Assembly: GCA_944329445.1 (NCBI GenBank)
Contig: CALVIH010000009.1
Coordinates: forward strand, 1 to 36,886
Length of the DNA stretch: 36,886 nucleotides
DNA from: an uncultured Bacilli bacterium
GTDB taxonomy: Bacteria > Bacillota_I > Bacilli_A > RF39 > UBA660
Reading direction: 5' to 3'
Part shown: positions 38 to 36,886 of the stretch, piece by piece
Layout of the letters: each line of letters opens with the position of its first letter
Position numbering within the stretch: position 1 is the stretch's first letter
Translations under genes and position numbers: made by a program
Notes under the pieces: model-generated
Databases searched by the model: none
Seen by the model: only the letters and a program-made list of their open reading frames with translations
Told to the model about the DNA's origin: nothing

Positions 38-856
38 TTATCGAAACCCTAGTTGAGTTTTATACTCTACTGGGGTTTTATAATTTAATGCATATGATGG
101 TCGAAAATAATTATTATCTTTAACTATATCATCAACAAACTCTTGAATTGTGTTATAATTATTCTTGTCAAAATCAATATACATTTCTTTTTTAATCCAG
201 CCATTTTTAGATTCAATTACTGGATTATCTGTTGGTGTACCAGCCCTAGACATAGATCTGGTTACTTTATAAGAATTAAATATATTGTTAAATGACATTG
301 AGGAATATACAGAACCTTGATCAGTGTGAACAATTGTATCAAGATCTTTATATCCTCTTTTTATTTTGTTATTCAACATATTTTTTAAAGCTTCTCTATG
401 GTTTAAAACACCATTACCATGCATTGATTCTCTAACATCATATCCAACAATTTCATTATTAAATACATCTAAATAAAAAGTCCAATCGTATGGTTTGCCT
501 TTGAATCCAATAGTAGTTGTATCTGAAACTATTTTTTCAAAAGGTCTTTTTGTATTCCAATTACCATTTATAATATTTGAATATTTAATTGATTCTTCGC
601 CAGTGGTTTTATATTTATAATGTTTAGCTTTTGATTTTATTTTTAATATCTTGCATACTTTATGAACTAAGTTATCCGATACTAACCAACCAGTTTCTCG
701 TTTTATAATTGCATTTATTCTATGATATCCATAACTTGGTTTTCTTTTATGTATGTCTTCTATTAATTCTCCTAAATCTTTTCTATTTATTTCATAATTA
801 TTTAATATATCTTTATTTTTTAACCATTTATAATAACCTGATCTTGAAACTTTCAT
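38..856 (-). CDS. IS3-family transposase OrfB, DDE catalytic domain
   Basis: This is the catalytic half of the IS transposase, which cuts and joins the element ends. The integrase-core (rve) fold carries Asp112 (VSDTT), Asp179 (HTDQGS) and Glu215 (NPVIESKNGW); the 35 residues between the last two are the D-D35-E spacing of the family. The N-terminus has the SRSGYYKW motif and an HTH_21-like segment with the PSYGYHRI motif. The first ATG at 856 has no convincing ribosome site. The frame is open upstream to the A7 tract at 973-979, so the working protein is probably an OrfAB fusion of about 414 residues made by -1 frameshifting. No internal stop or deletion is seen. Confidence 0.93.
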   Translation of the reverse strand: MKVSRSGYYKWLKNKDILNNYEINRKDLGELIEDIHKRKPSYGYHRINAIIKRETGWLVSDNLVHKVCKILKIKSKAKHYKYKTTGEESIKYSNIINGNWNTKRPFEKIVSDTTTIGFKGKPYDWTFYLDVFNNEIVGYDVRESMHGNGVLNHREALKNMLNNKIKRGYKDLDTIVHTDQGSVYSSMSFNNIFNSYKVTRSMSRAGTPTDNPVIESKNGWIKKEMYIDFDKNNYNTIQEFVDDIVKDNNYFRPSYALNYKTPVEYKTQLGFR

Positions 857-924
857 AATTAGACATAAAGATTTTATATTATATTCATTACTTAATAGTT
901 CAATTATTTCAAATTTTAATTGTG

Positions 925-1281
925 TTACTTCATGAACTTTACAATTGTACCATCTCCTTTCACCAGGTATCCTTTTTTTAACATTTCATTCTCAATTCTT
1001 AATTTCATATTTTCATATTCTAATTGTTCTTCTTTAGTTAAATTTTTTCTTTTTGAATATTTGCATATTGGATTACCTGGTTTCTTTTTATTTTCTAAAC
1101 CTTTTATTCCTTCGTCTTTATATTTTTTTGCCCATCTATGTAACATACTATTACTAATAATATTTTGTTTTGCAACTTTTGAAAGACTGGTTTCCATTTC
1201 TATAATTGGTTTAATAATTTTATATTTTTCTTCTGTTGTCCAAGTTTTAAATTTTTGTCCTTTTCTTGCCACTTTTTTCAT
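925..1281 (-). CDS. IS3-family OrfA, helix-turn-helix DNA-binding protein
   Basis: OrfA recognises the IS ends. It has a helix-turn-helix at about residues 15-55, with SKVAKQNIISNSMLHRW as the likely recognition part, and a leucine-zipper-like tail that ends in YENMKLRIENEMLKKG. This is the usual OrfA layout and length. The ATG at 1281 directly abuts an AAAGGAG sequence, which is too close. The GTG three codons further in lies 9 nt from that site and may be the real start. The frame continues about 50 nt past the A7 slip site before stopping. Confidence 0.88.
   Translation of the reverse strand: MKKVARKGQKFKTWTTEEKYKIIKPIIEMETSLSKVAKQNIISNSMLHRWAKKYKDEGIKGLENKKKPGNPICKYSKRKNLTKEEQLEYENMKLRIENEMLKKGYLVKGDGTIVKFMK
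973..979 (-). other. Programmed -1 frameshift site (A7) joining OrfA to OrfB
   Basis: On the coding strand OrfA reads TTA-AAA-AAA-GGA, an A_AAA_AAA_G slippery heptamer. After a -1 slip the frame reads R-I-P-G-E-R-R-W and stays open into orfB with no stop, passing through the TQLKFEIIELL and SLCLIMKVSRSGYYKW region expected of a fused IS3 transposase. Confidence 0.8.
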
Positions 1282-2724: not shown

Positions 2725-3612
2725 TTATTTTATTTTCTCTGAATTAACAAATACATATCCGTCATCTAATTCTTCAAATTCAAGTTCGTAATTTTCCATA
2801 TTATTACCATAATCACTTATTAAATCTTTACTGTATAATCCATAGAGATTAGGATTTTCATCATCTTCATAAGTTATTTTATAATTATTAATAATGGTTC
2901 CATCATTTAATTTTAAGGTAATAAATTCATTAGTATCCATTTCTTCACTATAATCAAAATGATTAAAAGCAATAGTTATGTACACTTTATTTCCAGTTTT
3001 GTAAGCTTTATAAATACCCGCTACAAAAGTATTAATATCTCCATTGCCTTGTCTTAAAATAGTATAAACCTTTTTATCATTAGAATAGTCATATTTTGTA
3101 TCAAACCAAGAAAGATCATTCATTGAATGTTTTGTTGCATTACCAGTTTTAAATAATTTATTATAAACCAAATTAACATCATTATAATCATATACTCCAT
3201 CACAATAATAATCATTTATATTACTTTCATCATAAGTATCTTCACATGAATATTTATCCGTTTTATTGGTATTTCTTATGGCAGATAAAGTTTTATAAAA
3301 ATCTTTATTAAAAATATTTGTATCACCATTATAATAGCCTAAATAGTGCATATCAGCTTTATATTGGTCTGTAAATATACTTTTAACAATATCCTCTGCT
3401 TCCATCAAGTCAAGATCTTCTTTATCTTCCTCTTTTACTTTATTTATATTGTCATTTTCTTTTTCTTCTTTAATATTTTGATCATTTCCAATTACATATC
3501 CTATGTATAATCCTGCTGCTACAATTATTAATATTCCTATTAATCTTAACATTCCTCTTATTATTTTTGTTTTCTTACTTGGTCTTCCTACCTCGTTTTT
3601 TATTACTCCCAT
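2725..3612 (-). CDS. Single-pass membrane protein with a large extracellular domain, function unknown
   Basis: I do not recognise this 295-residue protein. Residues 1-19 are cytoplasmic and basic, with a VGRPSKKTK patch. One transmembrane segment follows at about 20-45, then an acidic lysine-rich linker (EKENDNINKVKEEDKED). The exterior domain is rich in Tyr, Asp and Asn; it has one close Cys pair (KYSCEDTYDE...YYCDGVYDY) that could form a disulfide. A good ribosome site (AGGAG) precedes the ATG. It has its own promoter and terminator, so it is a single-gene unit between fmt and frr. Its promoter contains a G10 tract between the -35 and -10 boxes, which suggests on/off switching of a surface antigen or adhesin-like protein. 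Confidence 0.85.
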   Translation of the reverse strand: MGVIKNEVGRPSKKTKIIRGMLRLIGILIIVAAGLYIGYVIGNDQNIKEEKENDNINKVKEEDKEDLDLMEAEDIVKSIFTDQYKADMHYLGYYNGDTNIFNKDFYKTLSAIRNTNKTDKYSCEDTYDESNINDYYCDGVYDYNDVNLVYNKLFKTGNATKHSMNDLSWFDTKYDYSNDKKVYTILRQGNGDINTFVAGIYKAYKTGNKVYITIAFNHFDYSEEMDTNEFITLKLNDGTIINNYKITYEDDENPNLYGLYSKDLISDYGNNMENYELEFEELDDGYVFVNSEKIK

Positions 3613-3650
3613 CTTCTTACTCCTTTTCTATCTTATTACATGTTTATAAT

Positions 3651-3677
3651 ATCATATACCCCCCCCCCACTTGTCAA
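3651..3677 (-). promoter_or_regulatory. Promoter with a G10 homopolymer in the -35/-10 spacer
   Basis: Minus strand: TTGACA (3677-3672), spacer AGT-G10-TA (15 nt), TATGAT (3656-3651). An alternative extended -10, TGATATTAT, ends at 3646 with a 20-nt spacer. Neither spacing is the ideal 17 nt. Two more Gs would give 17 for TATGAT; three fewer would give 17 for TATTAT. It lies about 40-65 nt upstream of the start of the 2725-3612 gene. Confidence 0.75.
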
Positions 3678-3737
3678 TTAAATTATGCTGTTGATAATTT
3701 TTCTTCTTTATATTTAGACATATTTTTTTAAATTCCA

Positions 3738-6623: not shown

Positions 6624-6652
6624 TTTACATTATTTTTTTATTATTGTATACT
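6624..6652 (+). promoter_or_regulatory. Promoter of small RNA 1
   Basis: TTTACA (6624-6629), a 17-nt spacer, TATACT (6647-6652). Transcription would begin near 6659. Confidence 0.7.
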
Positions 6653-6658
6653 ATAAAT

Positions 6659-6750
6659 GAAGAGAGCACCTAACTTAAGGTTAGTAGCTTTCCTATTTGG
6701 TAACAGGAAAAAGCGTATGTCCCCTTATGGGATAGTACGCTTTTTCTTTT
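6659..6750 (+). ncRNA. Candidate antitoxin small RNA (locus 1)
   Basis: Predicted transcript of about 90 nt with a 17-nt-spaced promoter and a strong terminator. It has a 5' hairpin (CTAAC/GTTAG), a second hairpin (TTTCCT/AGGAAA) and the terminator stem. It begins GAGAGCACCTAA, nearly the same as the 5' end of the opposing toxin message (GAGAACACCTAA). Its 3' end overlaps the 3' end of that message by antisense pairing, which is the arrangement of Fst/par-type type I toxin-antitoxin loci. The family assignment is inference. Confidence 0.55.
6708..6750. terminator. Bidirectional terminator shared by small RNA 1 and the toxin-like message
   Basis: AAAAAGCGTA pairs with TACGCTTTTT, with an inner TCCC/GGGA stem. 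T tracts follow on both strands. The stop codon of the minus-strand peptide lies 4 bp away. Confidence 0.85.
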
Positions 6751-6829
6751 ATATTTTAAATATTAGTAAAACTAGTATCAAAATTAAAAGAATAATTATT
6801 ACTCTAAGAAACTTATTTTCTTTTTTCAT
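6749..6829 (-). CDS. 26-residue hydrophobic membrane peptide, candidate type I toxin (locus 1)
   Basis: The peptide starts MKKENKFLRVIIILLI, continues LILVLLIFKI and ends. It is a short basic head followed by a single transmembrane helix, the composition of Fst/TxpA-like pore-forming toxins. AGAGG lies 8 nt upstream of the ATG. In the leader, CCTCT could pair with that ribosome site. The stop abuts the shared terminator. It is too short for standard gene callers. Another possibility is a small regulatory membrane peptide. A second, truncated copy lies at the right end of the window. Confidence 0.6.
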   Translation of the reverse strand: MKKENKFLRVIIILLILILVLLIFKI

Positions 6830-6895: not shown

Positions 6896-6933
6896 TCACG
6901 TTTATATTTAGACGTTTCTTTTAAAATGTCCTT
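6896..6933 (-). promoter_or_regulatory. Conserved promoter element, copy A (toxin-like peptide 1)
   Basis: Minus strand: AAGGACA, then TTTTAAAA plus 12 nt (20 nt in all), then TATAAACGTGA. Copies B (28890-28927) and C (36640-36677) share the layout and the exact 20-nt spacing. The message would start near GAGAACACC. Confidence 0.6.
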
Positions 6934-20120: not shown

Positions 20121-21065
20121 TTAATTCTGATTAACTTTTTCTTTTACTTTGTTTAACTTATAGGTAGTAATAAAAATATCTAAATCACTTACGTATTCTA
20201 ATATCAGCTTATTATTCTTTCTTGATATTACTATCCCTATCGTTTTATTATGATAAGGTTCTTTTAACGTTTTATCTATTACTTTCATATAATTGAGTGT
20301 TTGCCCTATATCTTTCGCAGTTACTTCATTCTTTTTTAACTCACACACCATAAACCTATTTAATTTATAGTTAAAAAATAGTAAATCCACAAAATAGTTC
20401 TTATCATTATACGTTACTTTATATTCACTTCCTACAAAAGTAAAGCCTGTTCCTAGTTCTAAAAATACTTTTTCTAATTCTTTTAAAATGTATTTTTTTA
20501 GTACCTTTTCACTTAGTTTTTCTTCTTCAACTATGTTTATTATTATTGGGTCATGTAACATATCTTTTATTCTTAATTCACCATTTTGTCTTTCACTCAT
20601 TAATTTTATATTCTTTTTATCAGCATAAGATAGCCTATTAAATGAATCAGTTTTAATTTCATTTATTAATCCCCTTACTGATAAATTATTTTCTATGCAC
20701 CTATTTATGTAGTAGTTTCTTTCGTTTTCATTATCAAAAGAAAGAACATAATTCCAATGAGACCAACTCAATTGGGTCAACAGCGTTGACCTTTTCTTAT
20801 CTTTAAAATAACTATAAAATTTTCTCATTCTTTTTAAATTCTTTTGGCTGTAACCCTTACCATATTGTTCTACTAACTTTTTAGACCATTCCTTAATTAA
20901 TTTATCTCCGTACTTTGCTCTTTTCTCTCCTCCTTGAGCTTCTATTAATAATCTGCCTATCTCAAAGTACGTCTTTACTGTTTCTTTATTACTTTCAATG
21001 TATCTTACTTTTTCATTTACTTCTTTTTCTTCTATTATGCTTTTTATTTCGTCAAAGTAATTCAT
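20121..21065 (-). CDS. YhcG/DUF1016 PDDEXK-type nuclease
   Basis: A two-domain protein of 314 residues. The N-terminal DUF1016_N/YhcG part includes YFEIGRLLIEAQGGEKRAKY and YGKGYSQKNLKRMRKFY. The C-terminal PDDEXK domain has VDLLFFNYKLNRFMVCELKK as its catalytic strand (Asp and Glu-x-Lys). Members are often found in defence islands and next to restriction systems, but their cellular role is not settled. No partner genes are here. It sits between parE and yneF, breaking an otherwise conserved neighbourhood, so it is probably acquired. A 12-bp perfect inverted repeat covers its -10 and start codon. Confidence 0.9.
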   Translation of the reverse strand: MNYFDEIKSIIEEKEVNEKVRYIESNKETVKTYFEIGRLLIEAQGGEKRAKYGDKLIKEWSKKLVEQYGKGYSQKNLKRMRKFYSYFKDKKRSTLLTQLSWSHWNYVLSFDNENERNYYINRCIENNLSVRGLINEIKTDSFNRLSYADKKNIKLMSERQNGELRIKDMLHDPIIINIVEEEKLSEKVLKKYILKELEKVFLELGTGFTFVGSEYKVTYNDKNYFVDLLFFNYKLNRFMVCELKKNEVTAKDIGQTLNYMKVIDKTLKEPYHNKTIGIVISRKNNKLILEYVSDLDIFITTYKLNKVKEKVNQN

Positions 21066-28889: not shown

Positions 28890-28927
28890 TCATGTTTATA
28901 GTTCGCCTTATTTTTTAAAATACCCCT
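28890..28927 (-). promoter_or_regulatory. Conserved promoter element, copy B (comEA-comEC)
   Basis: Minus strand: AGGGGTA, 20 nt beginning TTTTAAAA, then TATAAACATGA. It lies about 15-52 nt upstream of the comEA ATG. See copies A (6896) and C (36640). Confidence 0.65.
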
Positions 28928-32826: not shown

Positions 32827-35790
32827 TTAACTGTTATCATTTTCATCCTTAATATCTTCTAACTTTACACTAACAAGCTTTGAAACTCCTGATTCTTGCA
32901 TCGTAATACCATATAAAACATCAGCGTATTCCATTGTTTTTTTCTTGTGAGTAATAACGATAAACTGAGTTTTACCTTTAAACTCACTTAAGAACTTACC
33001 GAAGTTATCAACGTTTACTTCATCTAATGCGGCTTCTACCTCGTCTAAAATGCAAAACGGAACTGGTCTAGTTTCTAATATTGCAAACAAAAGCGAAATA
33101 GCCGTAAGCGTTTTTTCACCGCCTGATAAAAGTGAAATGTGTTTAAGTGTTTTTCCTGGTGGTAACGCTTTTATATCTATACCAGTTTGAAGTACATCAT
33201 CAGGATTAGTAAGCCTAAGTTCGGCATCTCCCCCAGAAAATAATTTTTTAAACACTTCTTTAAACTTAACTTTTATTTGGTCAAAAGTTTCCATAAACTT
33301 TTCTTTCATAATGCCATCTAACTCTTTGATTATTTCTAAAATGGTATCTTCTGCCTTTATCAAATCCTCTTTTTGCCCGCATAAGAACTCGTATCTTTCT
33401 AAAACTCTTTGATACTCCTCTATAGCTCCTATGTTTACATCACCTAAGCGTTTAATTTCTATCTTACACTTATCAACTATTTTTCTAGCTTCTTCTTTAT
33501 CCATCTCAAGAAAATAGTTTTCCTTAGCCTTTTCAAACGTCATTGCATAATCTTCTGTCAAAGTATTAAGTAGGTTATCTAAAGCTACGTCGGCTCTATT
33601 TATCTTTATTTCTAAAGACTTTAACTCCTGACTCTTTTTATAAAACTCTTGATTGTTAACTTTTGAATTTCTTTCAAGTTTTTCTATTTCATCAGATAAT
33701 TCGGTTGTTTCAGCCTTTAACGACTTAACTTCTATTTCTAACTCTTTTTTCTCTTTTTCTTTATCGTAGTAAGAAGAAACTATTTTTTCTTCTTCTTTAC
33801 TTAATAAGTTATTTGATAAACTCTCAATGTCTTTTACTTCGTCCTTTGTTTTTTCTAATAATTCTTCTAAACTGCGTATTCGTTCGTTCTCATACTTAAG
33901 GTTTGCTTCCAAATTTGTTTTCGTTGTTAAAAGTTCGTTTCTTTCTTCTAAGATAGTTTTATACTTACTATCAGCCTCGTTAATACCCATTTCCAATGAG
34001 GCTCTTTGTTCCTCAAGGCTTTTTAATAGTTTTTCATTATCTAAAAGCTCATGCTTTTGTGTTATTAAACTAGAGGAATTCTTAACAGTACCACCGGTTA
34101 AAGACCCTCCGACGTGAAGCAATTCCCCGTCTAAGGTAACTATCTTATAACGATAATTTATCTTTCTTGCAATACTGTTTGCAGTATCAATATTATTTGT
34201 AACAATCGTTGTTCCAAGTTGATTTTTTATTACGCTATCATAGGTGCTTTCGTAACTTACCAAATCCGATGCAACACCAATAAAGTCTGGTTGGTTTCTT
34301 AATAATTGATATGTAGCATTATCTATTTCTCTTCCTTTTATAATGTTAATCGGAAAAAACGTTGCCCTACCAAACTTATTAACCTTAAGAAAATTAATAG
34401 CTTCCTTCGCCACGAACTCATCAGCAACCACAATATAATTAGAAGCTGCTCCTAAAGCGGTTGAAATTGCAACAGAATACTCTTTTTCCGTTTCAATAAG
34501 ATTCGCGATAACACCATAAATACCAGCTAGCTTAGGATTATCTAATACGTTTTTTACCGCGTAAGGTAATCCAGCATTATTTTCTATTGTGTTTCTTAGC
34601 ATTTCTATTTTATATCTAGTTTCATTTTCTAACCGGTTATGTTGCGTTAATTTTTTCTCACTTTCATCATGCGCTTTTAAAGCCTCATCATAAAGTTTGT
34701 TTTTCTCTTCTAATTTTAAATTAACATCATTTAATTTTTTGTTTATTATACTAACGTTATTTTTGGCACCAAAGATTTCATTTTCTCTTCTTAAAACGTT
34801 TTCTTTTAAATTCATCAAGTTTTCTTTTACTTTAGAATCTTCAGAATTATATTTTTGCCTTTCCATAACAAGGTCCTTTTTACCCAATAGGCCTTGCGCT
34901 TCGGAGCTTACACTAGTTAACTTGTTTTGCAAGTGGTAAAGTTCCTCGCTTTTTTTCGTTTGGTTTAGCTTTAGTTCCATTATTCTAGAGTTATCAACGT
35001 TACTTTCTGATTCTAACTTAATTATTTCTTCGTTTAAATCAGACGCAAGTTTTTTATTTTCTTGATATTCTCGGTTTATTTCATCAACTTCACTTACGAT
35101 TAAAGATACCTCTATTTCATCTAATTTCTTTTTATTTTCCAAGTACTTCGAAGCATCCTCACTTTGCTTTTTTAATGGGTTAAGATTACTTTCCAGCTCC
35201 AAAATAATATCATTTACCCTGGCCATGTTATCATGGGTTCGATCCAACTTTCTTAATGCTTCATCCTTTCTTTTTTTGTACTTTAACGTACCAGCTGCCG
35301 ATTCAAATATAATTCTTCTTTCCTCTGGCTTGTTAGATAAAATAGATGCTATATCACCCTGAGATATAATGTTAAACGACTCTTTATTAACACCAGTATC
35401 AACAAGTAAGTCCTGTATGTCTTTAAGCCTACACTTTTCATTATTTAAGTAATACTCATTTTCTCCAGTTTTATATATGCACCTTTTAATTGATACTTCC
35501 GTATAATCAATCGGTAGATATTTATCAGAGTTATCAAACACCAAAGTTACGCTGGCACTCGATGCAGCACGTCTTGATTTACTACCCGAAAATATTACGT
35601 CGCTCATCGCTCCTTCACCACGTAGTTGCTTTACGGATTGTTCTCCTAAAACCCAACGAACAGCATCAACAACGTTACTTTTACCACTACCATTAGGCCC
35701 TACTACCCCAGATATACCATCAGTTAATTCCAACTTTATTTTTTCCGCAAAAGATTTAAAACCTGATGCCCTTATCTCCTTTAAATACAT
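32827..35790 (-). CDS. smc: Chromosome segregation ATPase SMC, short-armed
   Basis: SMC, with ScpA and ScpB, compacts and segregates the chromosome. Walker A is GPNGSGKSN (31-39), the ABC signature LLSGGEKTLTAISLL, Walker B FCILDEVEAALDEVNVDNF. The hinge at about 400-540 contains AGIYGVIANLIETEKEYSVA and ends near LLHVGGSLTGGTV. The protein is 987 residues, about 200 fewer than the usual 1180-1190. The shortage lies in the two coiled-coil arms (about 230-240 each instead of about 340); the heads and hinge look complete. It is cotranscribed with rnc (16-bp gap). ftsY, usually next, is absent. Confidence 0.96.
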   Translation of the reverse strand: MYLKEIRASGFKSFAEKIKLELTDGISGVVGPNGSGKSNVVDAVRWVLGEQSVKQLRGEGAMSDVIFSGSKSRRAASSASVTLVFDNSDKYLPIDYTEVSIKRCIYKTGENEYYLNNEKCRLKDIQDLLVDTGVNKESFNIISQGDIASILSNKPEERRIIFESAAGTLKYKKRKDEALRKLDRTHDNMARVNDIILELESNLNPLKKQSEDASKYLENKKKLDEIEVSLIVSEVDEINREYQENKKLASDLNEEIIKLESESNVDNSRIMELKLNQTKKSEELYHLQNKLTSVSSEAQGLLGKKDLVMERQKYNSEDSKVKENLMNLKENVLRRENEIFGAKNNVSIINKKLNDVNLKLEEKNKLYDEALKAHDESEKKLTQHNRLENETRYKIEMLRNTIENNAGLPYAVKNVLDNPKLAGIYGVIANLIETEKEYSVAISTALGAASNYIVVADEFVAKEAINFLKVNKFGRATFFPINIIKGREIDNATYQLLRNQPDFIGVASDLVSYESTYDSVIKNQLGTTIVTNNIDTANSIARKINYRYKIVTLDGELLHVGGSLTGGTVKNSSSLITQKHELLDNEKLLKSLEEQRASLEMGINEADSKYKTILEERNELLTTKTNLEANLKYENERIRSLEELLEKTKDEVKDIESLSNNLLSKEEEKIVSSYYDKEKEKKELEIEVKSLKAETTELSDEIEKLERNSKVNNQEFYKKSQELKSLEIKINRADVALDNLLNTLTEDYAMTFEKAKENYFLEMDKEEARKIVDKCKIEIKRLGDVNIGAIEEYQRVLERYEFLCGQKEDLIKAEDTILEIIKELDGIMKEKFMETFDQIKVKFKEVFKKLFSGGDAELRLTNPDDVLQTGIDIKALPPGKTLKHISLLSGGEKTLTAISLLFAILETRPVPFCILDEVEAALDEVNVDNFGKFLSEFKGKTQFIVITHKKKTMEYADVLYGITMQESGVSKLVSVKLEDIKDENDNS

Positions 35791-35806: not shown

Positions 35807-36472
35807 CTAAAGTTTTGCGCACTTTTCCATTGCGTGATGAGCCGCTTCTTGCTCTGCTTCTTTTTTTGATTTAGCTACCCCAGTGCCAAGAACAATACCA
35901 TCCACCACCGCGTTCATGGTAAAAGTTCTGTCGTGTGAAGGTCCCTCTTCATTTACCAATTCATAGGTAACCGACCTTTTATTTGTTTGAACCATTTCTT
36001 GTAGTTTTGACTTGTAATCCATAAAAAACGTTTCTGGTTTCTCCTTAATAAAAGGTATAACTATCTCATAAACTATTTCCCTTGCCTTTTTGTATCCCTG
36101 GTCTAAGTATACCGCTCCTAAGAACGATTCAAACATATCCGCAAGCGTTGCTTTTCTGTACTTACCACCATGAGCTTCCTCGCCCTTTCCTACTTTTGCA
36201 TAACTTGGGAAGTCAAGTAATAAAGCATATTCGTATAAAGCATTTTCACACACATACATTGATCTAATCTTAGTCATCTTTCCTTCTTCATAATCAGTTG
36301 TATTATAAAGATAATCACTCATGATAAGATCTAGTACCTTATCACCTAAAAATTCTAATCTTTGATAATCTTCTTTCAAATGATGTTCATTACAATATGA
36401 CGAATGTGAAAAAGCTGTATCATAAATATGCATATTATTAGTTTTAATGTTGAACCTATCAAGTAGTTTCAT
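35807..36472 (-). CDS. rnc: Ribonuclease III
   Basis: Cuts double-stranded RNA in rRNA maturation and mRNA turnover. The catalytic domain has YQRLEFLGDKVLDLIMSDYL with Glu40 and Asp44, and LADMFESFLGAVYLDQGY with Asp112 and Glu115. The C-terminal dsRNA-binding domain is at about 155-220 (YKSKLQEMVQTNKRSVTYEL, GVAKSKKEAEQEAAHHAMEK). The ATG at 36472 has AGGTG 6 nt upstream; the GTG three codons earlier is part of that site and is rejected. The upstream region carries a long inverted repeat and promoter element C. Confidence 0.97.
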   Translation of the reverse strand: MKLLDRFNIKTNNMHIYDTAFSHSSYCNEHHLKEDYQRLEFLGDKVLDLIMSDYLYNTTDYEEGKMTKIRSMYVCENALYEYALLLDFPSYAKVGKGEEAHGGKYRKATLADMFESFLGAVYLDQGYKKAREIVYEIVIPFIKEKPETFFMDYKSKLQEMVQTNKRSVTYELVNEEGPSHDRTFTMNAVVDGIVLGTGVAKSKKEAEQEAAHHAMEKCAKL

Positions 36473-36548
36473 ATTTATCACCTATTAAATTATAACAAAA
36501 ATAAAGAATTTAATCTAGCATATGCCCATAATATCACTTTTATATTTT

Positions 36549-36641
36549 GAAGGATAAGAAAAAATAGGTAATGCTTTGTACAATTAAAAAAGAGAAAGGA
36601 ACGGCTATGAATGAAAAAAAGTAAATATTTTCTCATCCTTC
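36549..36641 (-). other. Long inverted repeat in the rnc leader
   Basis: Arms 36549-36568 and 36622-36641. Read on the minus strand, GAAGGATGAGAAAATATTTA pairs with CCTATTTTTTCTTATCCTTC: 14 continuous pairs with one G-U, then further partial pairing, around a 53-nt loop. If transcription starts at element C, this helix lies in the 5' leader of rnc-smc. Confidence 0.55.
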
Positions 36642-36677
36642 ATGTTTATAATTAGACACTTATTTTAAAATACCCCT
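36640..36677 (-). promoter_or_regulatory. Conserved promoter element, copy C (upstream of rnc)
   Basis: Minus strand: AGGGGTA, 20 nt beginning TTTTAAAA, then TATAAACATGA. AGGGGTATTTTAAAA and TATAAACATGA are identical to copy B. It points toward rnc, about 165 nt upstream of the start codon. Confidence 0.6.
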
Positions 36678-36722: not shown

Positions 36723-36751
36723 TTGATATTAAATTCGTTTTTAGATATAAT
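36723..36751 (+). promoter_or_regulatory. Promoter of small RNA 2
   Basis: TTGATA (36723-36728), a 17-nt spacer, TATAAT (36746-36751). Transcription would begin near 36758. Confidence 0.8.
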
Positions 36752-36757
36752 ATAAAT

Positions 36758-36840
36758 GTAAGGAAGCAGCTTACTAGTTGTTTTCCAATTAATATTCATT
36801 AATGAAGAACAGAGCTAGTATTTACCTGGCTCTGTTTTTC
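36758..36840 (+). ncRNA. Candidate antitoxin small RNA (locus 2)
   Basis: About 83 nt with the same plan as small RNA 1: a 5' hairpin (GTAAG/CTTAC), a TAG...TTTTCC stretch, a second hairpin (ATTAAT/ATTAAT) and a strong terminator that a minus-strand hydrophobic peptide runs up to. Primary sequence matches locus 1 only in part. Confidence 0.5.
36808..36840. terminator. Terminator shared by small RNA 2 and the toxin-like peptide 2 message
   Basis: AACAGAGCTAG / CTGGCTCTGTT around a 7-nt loop, then T5 on the plus strand. On the minus strand the run after the stem is AACAAC-like and weaker. Confidence 0.75.
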
Positions 36841-36845
36841 TTACG

Positions 36846-36886
36846 TTATATAACAATCACTATGACTACTATTATAAGTAATATGA
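36846..36886 (-). CDS. C-terminal end of a second hydrophobic toxin-like peptide (cut by the window)
   Basis: Only the last 12 codons are visible: ILLIIVVIVIVI followed by TAA. This is a pure membrane-helix tail ending 6 bp from the terminator region, like the first peptide (ends LILVLLIFKI, 4 bp from its terminator). The start lies outside the window. The call depends on the repeated layout, because the tail alone is too short to identify. Confidence 0.45.
   Translation of the reverse strand, partial: ILLIIVVIVIVI

What the first reader, a model, noticed from the sequence alone, without database searches (positions are those of the whole stretch)
28890..28927. A shared 38-bp promoter element at comEA, the toxin peptide and the rnc leader
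Seen: three minus-strand sites (6896-6933, 28890-28927, 36640-36677) read RRGGRYA, exactly 20 nt starting TTTTAAAA, then TATAAAC[A/G]TGA. B and C are identical over AGGGGTATTTTAAAA and TATAAACATGA, and A and C also share GTCTAA. The 20-nt gap is too long for a plain sigma-A promoter. Inference: sites for an alternative sigma factor or an activator linking competence, the toxin-like locus and RNase III/SMC. In S. aureus a SigH-type factor drives com operons, so a competence sigma is one candidate.
Basis: partly seen in the sequence, partly recalled or inferred. Interest (0 to 1): 0.75.

Follow-up and report, generated by a model that had tools for sequence, protein, structure and literature searches.

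The report
SigH promoter shared by competence, toxin genes
The three look-alike DNA stretches are real switches that most likely answer to one alternative sigma factor (SigH), which in this genus of small-genome gut bacteria appears to turn on DNA-uptake genes, a peptide exporter and about a dozen small membrane-peptide genes, each paired with an antisense RNA that has its own ordinary promoter.

Summary
The three sites exist as described. A refined pattern has 16 matches against 0. The boxes were misread: the 'GTCTAA' is the -10, not spacer. The element is AGGGG(A/T)ATT, 11 nt, G(T/G)C(T/G)AA(Y)TA, close to the published SigH consensus RMAGGRWWW-N11-12-RRMGAAW. Relatives carry exact -10s (GGAGAAT, GAAGAAT, AAAGAAT). 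A SigH gene sits in the canonical rlmB-sigH-secE-nusG locus and occurs in all 18 species of the genus. All 18 comEA genes have the element just before the Shine-Dalgarno sequence. The regulon also includes a C39 bacteriocin-type exporter, DUF1016/ORF6N genes and about 12 dispersed loci for 26-30-aa membrane peptides. Those loci have type I toxin-antitoxin architecture: a convergent antisense RNA with a sigma-A promoter and a shared bidirectional terminator. An antisense-RNA model that contains no SigH box recovers the same loci. Every readable toxin promoter carries the element, and it drifts together with comEA's in each species (p=0.00015). No transcription start has been mapped. SigH control and toxicity are inferences. 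The rnc-smc link rests on two close species.

The parts
28890..28927 (-). SigH-type promoter of comEA-comEC (site B): -35 AGGGGTATT 28919-28927, 11-nt spacer, -10 GGCGAACTA 28899-28907; Shine-Dalgarno directly downstream
   Evidence: same position in all 18 species; Listeria comEA SigH promoter is AAAGGAATT / GGCGAAT (PMC4754846)
28183..28875 (-). comEA (SLBB + helix-hairpin-helix)
   Evidence: Pfam PF10531, PF12836
26178..28181 (-). comEC (Competence + metallo-beta-lactamase domains)
   Evidence: Pfam PF03772, PF00753
6896..6933 (-). SigH-type promoter of a small membrane peptide (site A): -10 GTCTAAATA 6905-6913
6749..6829 (-). 26-aa membrane peptide MKKENKFLRVIIILLILILVLLIFKI, putative type I toxin
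   Evidence: class II peptide conserved in other species; no Pfam/NCBIfam match
6706..6747 (.). bidirectional terminator shared by toxin mRNA and antisense RNA
   Evidence: about 40-nt perfect RNA1:RNA2 duplex, -71.8 kcal/mol against -33.2 +/- 4.0 shuffled
6624..6652 (+). sigma-A promoter of the antisense RNA, TTTACA-N17-TATACT; RNA runs from about 6659 to about 6750
   Evidence: model R2 hit 6624-6693, 75.7 bits (this copy was among the model's training sequences)
36640..36677 (-). SigH-type promoter 159 nt upstream of the rnc start (site C): -10 GTCTAATTA 36649-36657
   Evidence: conserved upstream of rnc in G016 (L125)
35807..36481 (-). rnc (RNase III), followed by smc 32827-35790
   Evidence: Pfam PF14622/PF00035 and PF02463
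36723..36850 (+). antisense RNA of a second, class I toxin locus cut by the contig end: TTGATA 36723, TATAAT 36746, then RNA
   Evidence: model R2 hit 36723-36786, 72.3 bits; not in the training set
36846..36884 (-). 3' end of the class I toxin ORF (..ILLIIVVIVIVI*), 5' part lies beyond the contig end
3702..3744 (-). weaker element-like site (30.8 bits) upstream of exported protein ORF 2725-3612; status uncertain

Best explanation
The element is a promoter read by RNA polymerase carrying the SigH ortholog. SigH, when active, transcribes comEA-comEC with a very short leader, a C39-peptidase peptide exporter, nuclease-like DUF1016/ORF6N genes and a set of dispersed membrane-peptide genes. Each peptide gene is also covered by a convergent antisense RNA made from a housekeeping sigma-A promoter, so the peptide is silenced while sigma-A dominates and can only win when SigH rises. 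Shown by sequence: the element, its conservation, its association with these genes, the antisense promoters and the shared terminators. Inferred: that SigH is the factor, the start sites, that the peptides are toxic, and that the antisense RNA silences them.
For: The -35 and -10 match the published SigH consensus at 11-12 nt spacing. The -10 is exact in several relatives: GGAGAATTA, GAAGAATAA and AAAGAATAA. The SigH gene lies in mrnC-rlmB-sigH-secE-nusG-rplK, its best NCBIfam models are SigH, and it is present in 18/18 species. comEA has the element directly before the SD in 18/18 species, judged by eye in the drifted ones. In other genera of the family, 15/29 comEA genes have RMAGGRWW at -70 to -38 (shuffled 2.8 +/- 1.5, maximum 7 in 300 shuffles), with a fixed 'AT' where GAAT is expected. 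Regulon. Antisense sigma-A promoters sit at a near-constant place, TATAAT-like in about 35 of 36 complete loci. Model R2, which contains no SigH box, finds 12 copies here and some in 15/18 species. All 22 or so toxin upstream regions readable from those hits carry the element or its drifted form. comEA and toxin promoters drift together within species (8.7 against 11.5 mismatches in 36, p=0.00015; -35 p=0.0012, -10/start p=0.0016, spacer p=0.20).
Against: No transcript or start-site data. The degenerate SigH consensus alone is not significant in such AT-rich DNA: the strength comes from position, conservation and co-drift. The -35 departs from consensus at the third base (G for A), and the -10 has T for G in most copies of this species. 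SigH scores below the NCBIfam equivalog cut-offs. spoIIA, a classical SigH target, lacks the element. The 5' repeats of the two RNAs are the same sequence, not complementary, and in six of seven loci leader x RNA2 pairing was no better than shuffled.
Confidence: 0.78

Rival explanations
1. An ordinary sigma-A promoter with TATAAAC as -10, activated by a regulator that binds the GTCTAA block (for instance a Spo0A-like box TGTCGAA).
For: TATAAA resembles a -10 and TGTCTAA is one base from a 0A box; a perfect TGTCGAA lies upstream of spoIIAA in this genome.
Against: True sigma-A promoters in the same loci are TTGATA/TTTACA-N17-TATAAT and the element has neither box. In relatives TATAAAC is replaced by TAATTAA while the G..GAAT block at fixed distance from GG is kept. 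The -35-like GGRWWW is conserved as well.
Confidence: 0.1
2. The element is read by another alternative sigma factor of the genome, such as the extra SigE/K-like protein (L044) or the long sigma-70 protein (L038).
For: Eight sigma-70 region 2 proteins exist; two are not assignable to a known class.
Against: Spacing and both boxes fit SigH, whose known targets in Listeria include comEA (PMC4754846). SigH is present in 18/18 species as is the comEA element.
Confidence: 0.1
3. The sites are copies of a dispersed repeat (MITE-like) and carry no regulation.
For: Twelve toxin loci per genome with inverted repeats near both ends.
Against: comEA, the C39 exporter, DUF1016 and rnc sites share only the ~40-nt element, not the flanks. 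The comEA site is at the same place in 18 species. -35 and -10 co-drift but the spacer does not.
Confidence: 0.02
4. The membrane-peptide loci are not toxin-antitoxin systems but small regulatory or signalling peptides with an antisense control RNA.
For: No match to any toxin family in Pfam or NCBIfam; no toxicity data.
Against: Convergent sigma-A antisense RNA, shared terminator and, in most loci folded, a sequestered Shine-Dalgarno are the hallmarks of type I systems (PMC7472228).
Confidence: 0.25

Closest known systems
SigH-dependent com promoters (Listeria monocytogenes comEA, comGA, coiA; PMC4754846)
   Same: comEA promoter, GG-centred -35, GGCGAA -10, 11-12 nt spacing
   Different: -35 is AGGGG(A/T)ATT not AAAGGAATT; -10 mostly GTCTAAY in this species; no comG operon or dprA found; extra targets (exporter, membrane peptides, DUF1016/ORF6N)
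S. aureus SigH / streptococcal ComX competence sigma factors (S. aureus: PMC3486894; ComX from general knowledge)
   Same: SigH-family factor assigned to comE
   Different: here in sporulating, genome-reduced uncultured Bacilli that also encode SigE, F, G and K; regulon dominated by antisense-paired peptides
Fst/par type I toxin-antitoxin systems (PMC7472228)
   Same: convergent promoters, ~40-nt overlap at a shared bidirectional terminator, short membrane peptide, sequestered Shine-Dalgarno in most loci
   Different: no conserved tryptophan, no PXXXG, no charged C-terminal tail; 5' repeats are inverted, not direct; toxin promoter is an alternative-sigma promoter
C. difficile SigH-dependent promoters (PMC7438776)
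   Same: promoters such as AAAGGAAAAT...GTAGAATTATAA resemble the element
   Different: regulon there is sporulation, division, cell wall and metabolism

Membership tests
SigH-dependent promoter | -35 RMAGGRWWW | tested here: inconclusive
   Window sites match about 6-7 of 9; the GG core is kept (in site A only at 12-nt spacing) but the third base is G; other genera of the family have exact AAAGGAAAT
SigH-dependent promoter | -10 RRMGAAW at 11-12 nt | tested here: met
   GGCGAAC at comEA; exact GGAGAAT, GAAGAAT, AAAGAAT in relatives; most copies in this genome read GTCTAAN
SigH-dependent promoter | SigH gene present in the genome | tested here: met
SigH-dependent promoter | transcription lost without SigH | not testable with these tools
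   needs experiment
Type I toxin-antitoxin system | small membrane peptide ORF with an antisense RNA gene on the opposite strand | tested here: met
Type I toxin-antitoxin system | peptide toxic, antisense RNA neutralises | not testable with these tools
   needs experiment
Fst/Ldr (par) family | Fst/Ldr signature: Trp after the TM helix, charged C-terminus, P/D/S/TXXXG | tested here: not met
   Peptides end in IFKI/IVI, have no Trp and no such motif; no Pfam or NCBIfam match
Fst/Ldr (par) family | convergent promoters and shared bidirectional terminator | tested here: met
Fst/Ldr (par) family | direct repeats DRa/DRb giving 5' complementarity | tested here: not met
   5' repeats are inverted; leader x RNA2 pairing above shuffles in only one of seven loci

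The most novel reading that the evidence does not exclude
In this lineage one competence-type sigma factor simultaneously switches on DNA uptake, a peptide exporter and a dozen dispersed type I toxins whose antitoxins stay on the housekeeping sigma, so sigma competition itself sets the toxin/antitoxin balance and couples competence to growth arrest or death of part of the population.
Probability: 0.4. Interest if true: 0.8.

Novelty: new variant of a known kind. Interest (0 to 1): 0.62.

Why it matters
SigH/ComX control of com genes is known, but I found no report in the literature searched of a family of type I toxin-antitoxin loci with the toxin under SigH and the antitoxin under sigma-A. 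It gives a simple rule, sigma-factor competition, for when such toxins are released, and it predicts a competence or transition-state programme in uncultured sporulating gut Bacilli with 1-Mb genomes. The co-drift of promoters across the genus also offers a natural experiment on how a sigma factor's specificity evolves.

Tried and rejected
Rfam scan of the window: no match. Matching the degenerate SigH consensus in upstream regions against dinucleotide shuffles: not significant on its own, replaced by a positional test. Leader-to-antisense 5' pairing: no better than shuffled in six of seven loci (for some loci the script chose an upstream start codon, so those leader values are truncated). ComGA-like ATPase and Tad CpaF loci: no element in the copies scanned. 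DprA: absent from all 18 genomes. spoIIAA promoter: no element. The GG-leader idea (peptides as substrates of the C39 exporter) was rejected because the peptides have no double-glycine site. Residues of SigH that separate species with AGGGG-type and GAGTG-type -35 boxes: one weak candidate, confounded by phylogeny.

Full report
Observation. The three minus-strand sites are exactly as described. Allowing mismatches and refining the pattern gives 16 matches against 0 control matches. So the element is far above chance and three of four exact copies happen to lie in this window.

Anatomy. Laid out with flanks, the copies share TTTTAGGGGAATTTWAAAA..GTCTAAYTATAARYATGA with fixed spacing. The better reading is -35 AGGGG(A/T)ATT, 11 nt, -10 GnnKAAYTA. 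The Listeria SigH consensus is RMAGGRWWW-N11-12-RRMGAAW, and the Listeria comEA promoter is AAAGGAATT / GGCGAAT (PMC4754846). Site B reads AGGGGTATT-N11-GGCGAACTA. In sister species the -10 becomes an exact match: GGAGAATTA, GAAGAATAA and AAAGAATAA.

The sigma factor. The genome has eight sigma-70 region 2 proteins: RpoD, a long sigma-70 protein, proteins closest to SigG, SigE and SigK, a SigF-like protein by inspection, a SigE/K-like protein and one whose best NCBIfam models are SigH. The last lies in mrnC-rlmB-sigH-secE-nusG-rplK (that this is the usual sigH locus of Bacillus and Staphylococcus is from general knowledge) and has an ortholog in all 18 species of the genus.

comEA. All 18 species encode comEA, and in all 18 the element or a drifted version sits directly in front of the Shine-Dalgarno sequence (the weaker copies were judged by eye). 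In 29 other genera of the family, 15 comEA genes have RMAGGRWW between -70 and -38, against 2.8 +/- 1.5 in shuffles (maximum 7 in 300 shuffles). Anchored on that box, an A-T pair is nearly invariant where GAAT is expected at 11-nt spacing. Counting consensus matches without position was not significant.

The regulon. A sequence-only model (R1) was run over the genus and about 60 sites were read with their flanks. Recurrent targets are comEA-comEC; an ABC exporter with a C39 peptidase domain (eight species); DUF1016/YhcG and ORF6N proteins; a MacB-like ABC transporter; and many genes for 26-30-aa hydrophobic peptides of two classes (MRFKFEIKFTPKLIIILL.. and MKKENxFLKVIIILLILLL..). rnc has the element only here and in the closest relative, G016.

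The peptides are type I toxin-antitoxin-like. Aligned copies stay conserved about 100-130 nt past the ORF. There the opposite strand carries a near-consensus sigma-A promoter, TTGATA or TTTACA-N17-TATAAT, 91-107 nt past the stop codon in about 35 of 36 complete loci. The two RNAs converge on one bidirectional terminator and overlap there by 36-40 nt; the toxin Shine-Dalgarno is held in a leader hairpin in most loci folded. A model of the antisense RNA alone (R2), which contains no SigH box, finds 12 loci in this genome and copies in 15 of 18 species. In the 22 or so loci whose toxin upstream region could be read, the SigH-type element was present. In species G007, G009, G010 and G013 it had drifted to GnGTGTTTTT..AATAATTAAANTGA, the same drift as at comEA in those species. 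A permutation test over 13 species gives 8.7 mismatches within species against 11.5 permuted (p=0.00015), significant in the -35 and -10/start regions but not in the spacer. Non-homologous genes changing their promoter in step is what a shared trans-acting factor predicts. The toxin sites in that test were those displayed by earlier calls, and species relatedness was not modelled.

Mechanism. SigH, when active, transcribes DNA-uptake genes, the exporter and the peptides. The antisense RNAs come from sigma-A, so the balance between the two sigma factors sets whether peptide is made. The architecture is shown; the sigma assignment is strongly indicated; toxicity and silencing are inferred by analogy with par/Fst systems (PMC7472228). 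The peptides lack the Fst/Ldr signature and their 5' repeats are inverted, so they work like that family but are not filed in it.

Limits. The organism is an uncultured Bacilli lineage: the nearest named records are metagenome-assembled genomes labelled uncultured Bacilli bacterium. No transcript data exist here. Literature searches found no type I system under SigH, but subscription journals are mostly not covered.

Noticed in passing
window 3640-3690 (-), and L012, L038, L112, L114, L117, L175, L254, L258: Runs of 8-10 G sit between TTGAC and TATTAT in what looks like a sigma-A promoter, upstream of exported-protein genes and one extra sigma-70 gene. Spacer lengths are 15, 17, 18 or 21, as expected of phase-variable promoters.
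   Followed up: partly
L038 (G000 contig C5 near 5000): An extra long sigma-70 protein whose candidate promoter holds an 8-G tract with a 15-nt spacer: possibly a phase-variable sigma factor.
   Followed up: no
all 18 genomes of the genus: DprA (PF02481) was not found in any species although comEA is in all, with comEC next to it where the flank was read; competence would have to work without DprA or serve another purpose.
   Followed up: partly
L043 upstream of spoIIAA: Perfect Spo0A box TGTCGAA and no SigH-type element before the sigF operon, so SigH may have lost that sporulation target here.
   Followed up: no
window 38-1281: Two adjacent minus-strand ORFs that look like an IS3-type transposase pair (helix-turn-helix orfA and integrase orfB); recognised by eye only.
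   Followed up: no
window 20121-21065 (-): DUF1016/YhcG PDDEXK nuclease gene; other copies in the genome carry the SigH-type element, and no element was found upstream of this one.
   Followed up: partly
L145-L162: SigH region 4.2 differs between species with AGGGG-type and GAGTG-type -35 boxes (for example ALER/ALAR against ALFR), a possible specificity switch.
   Followed up: partly
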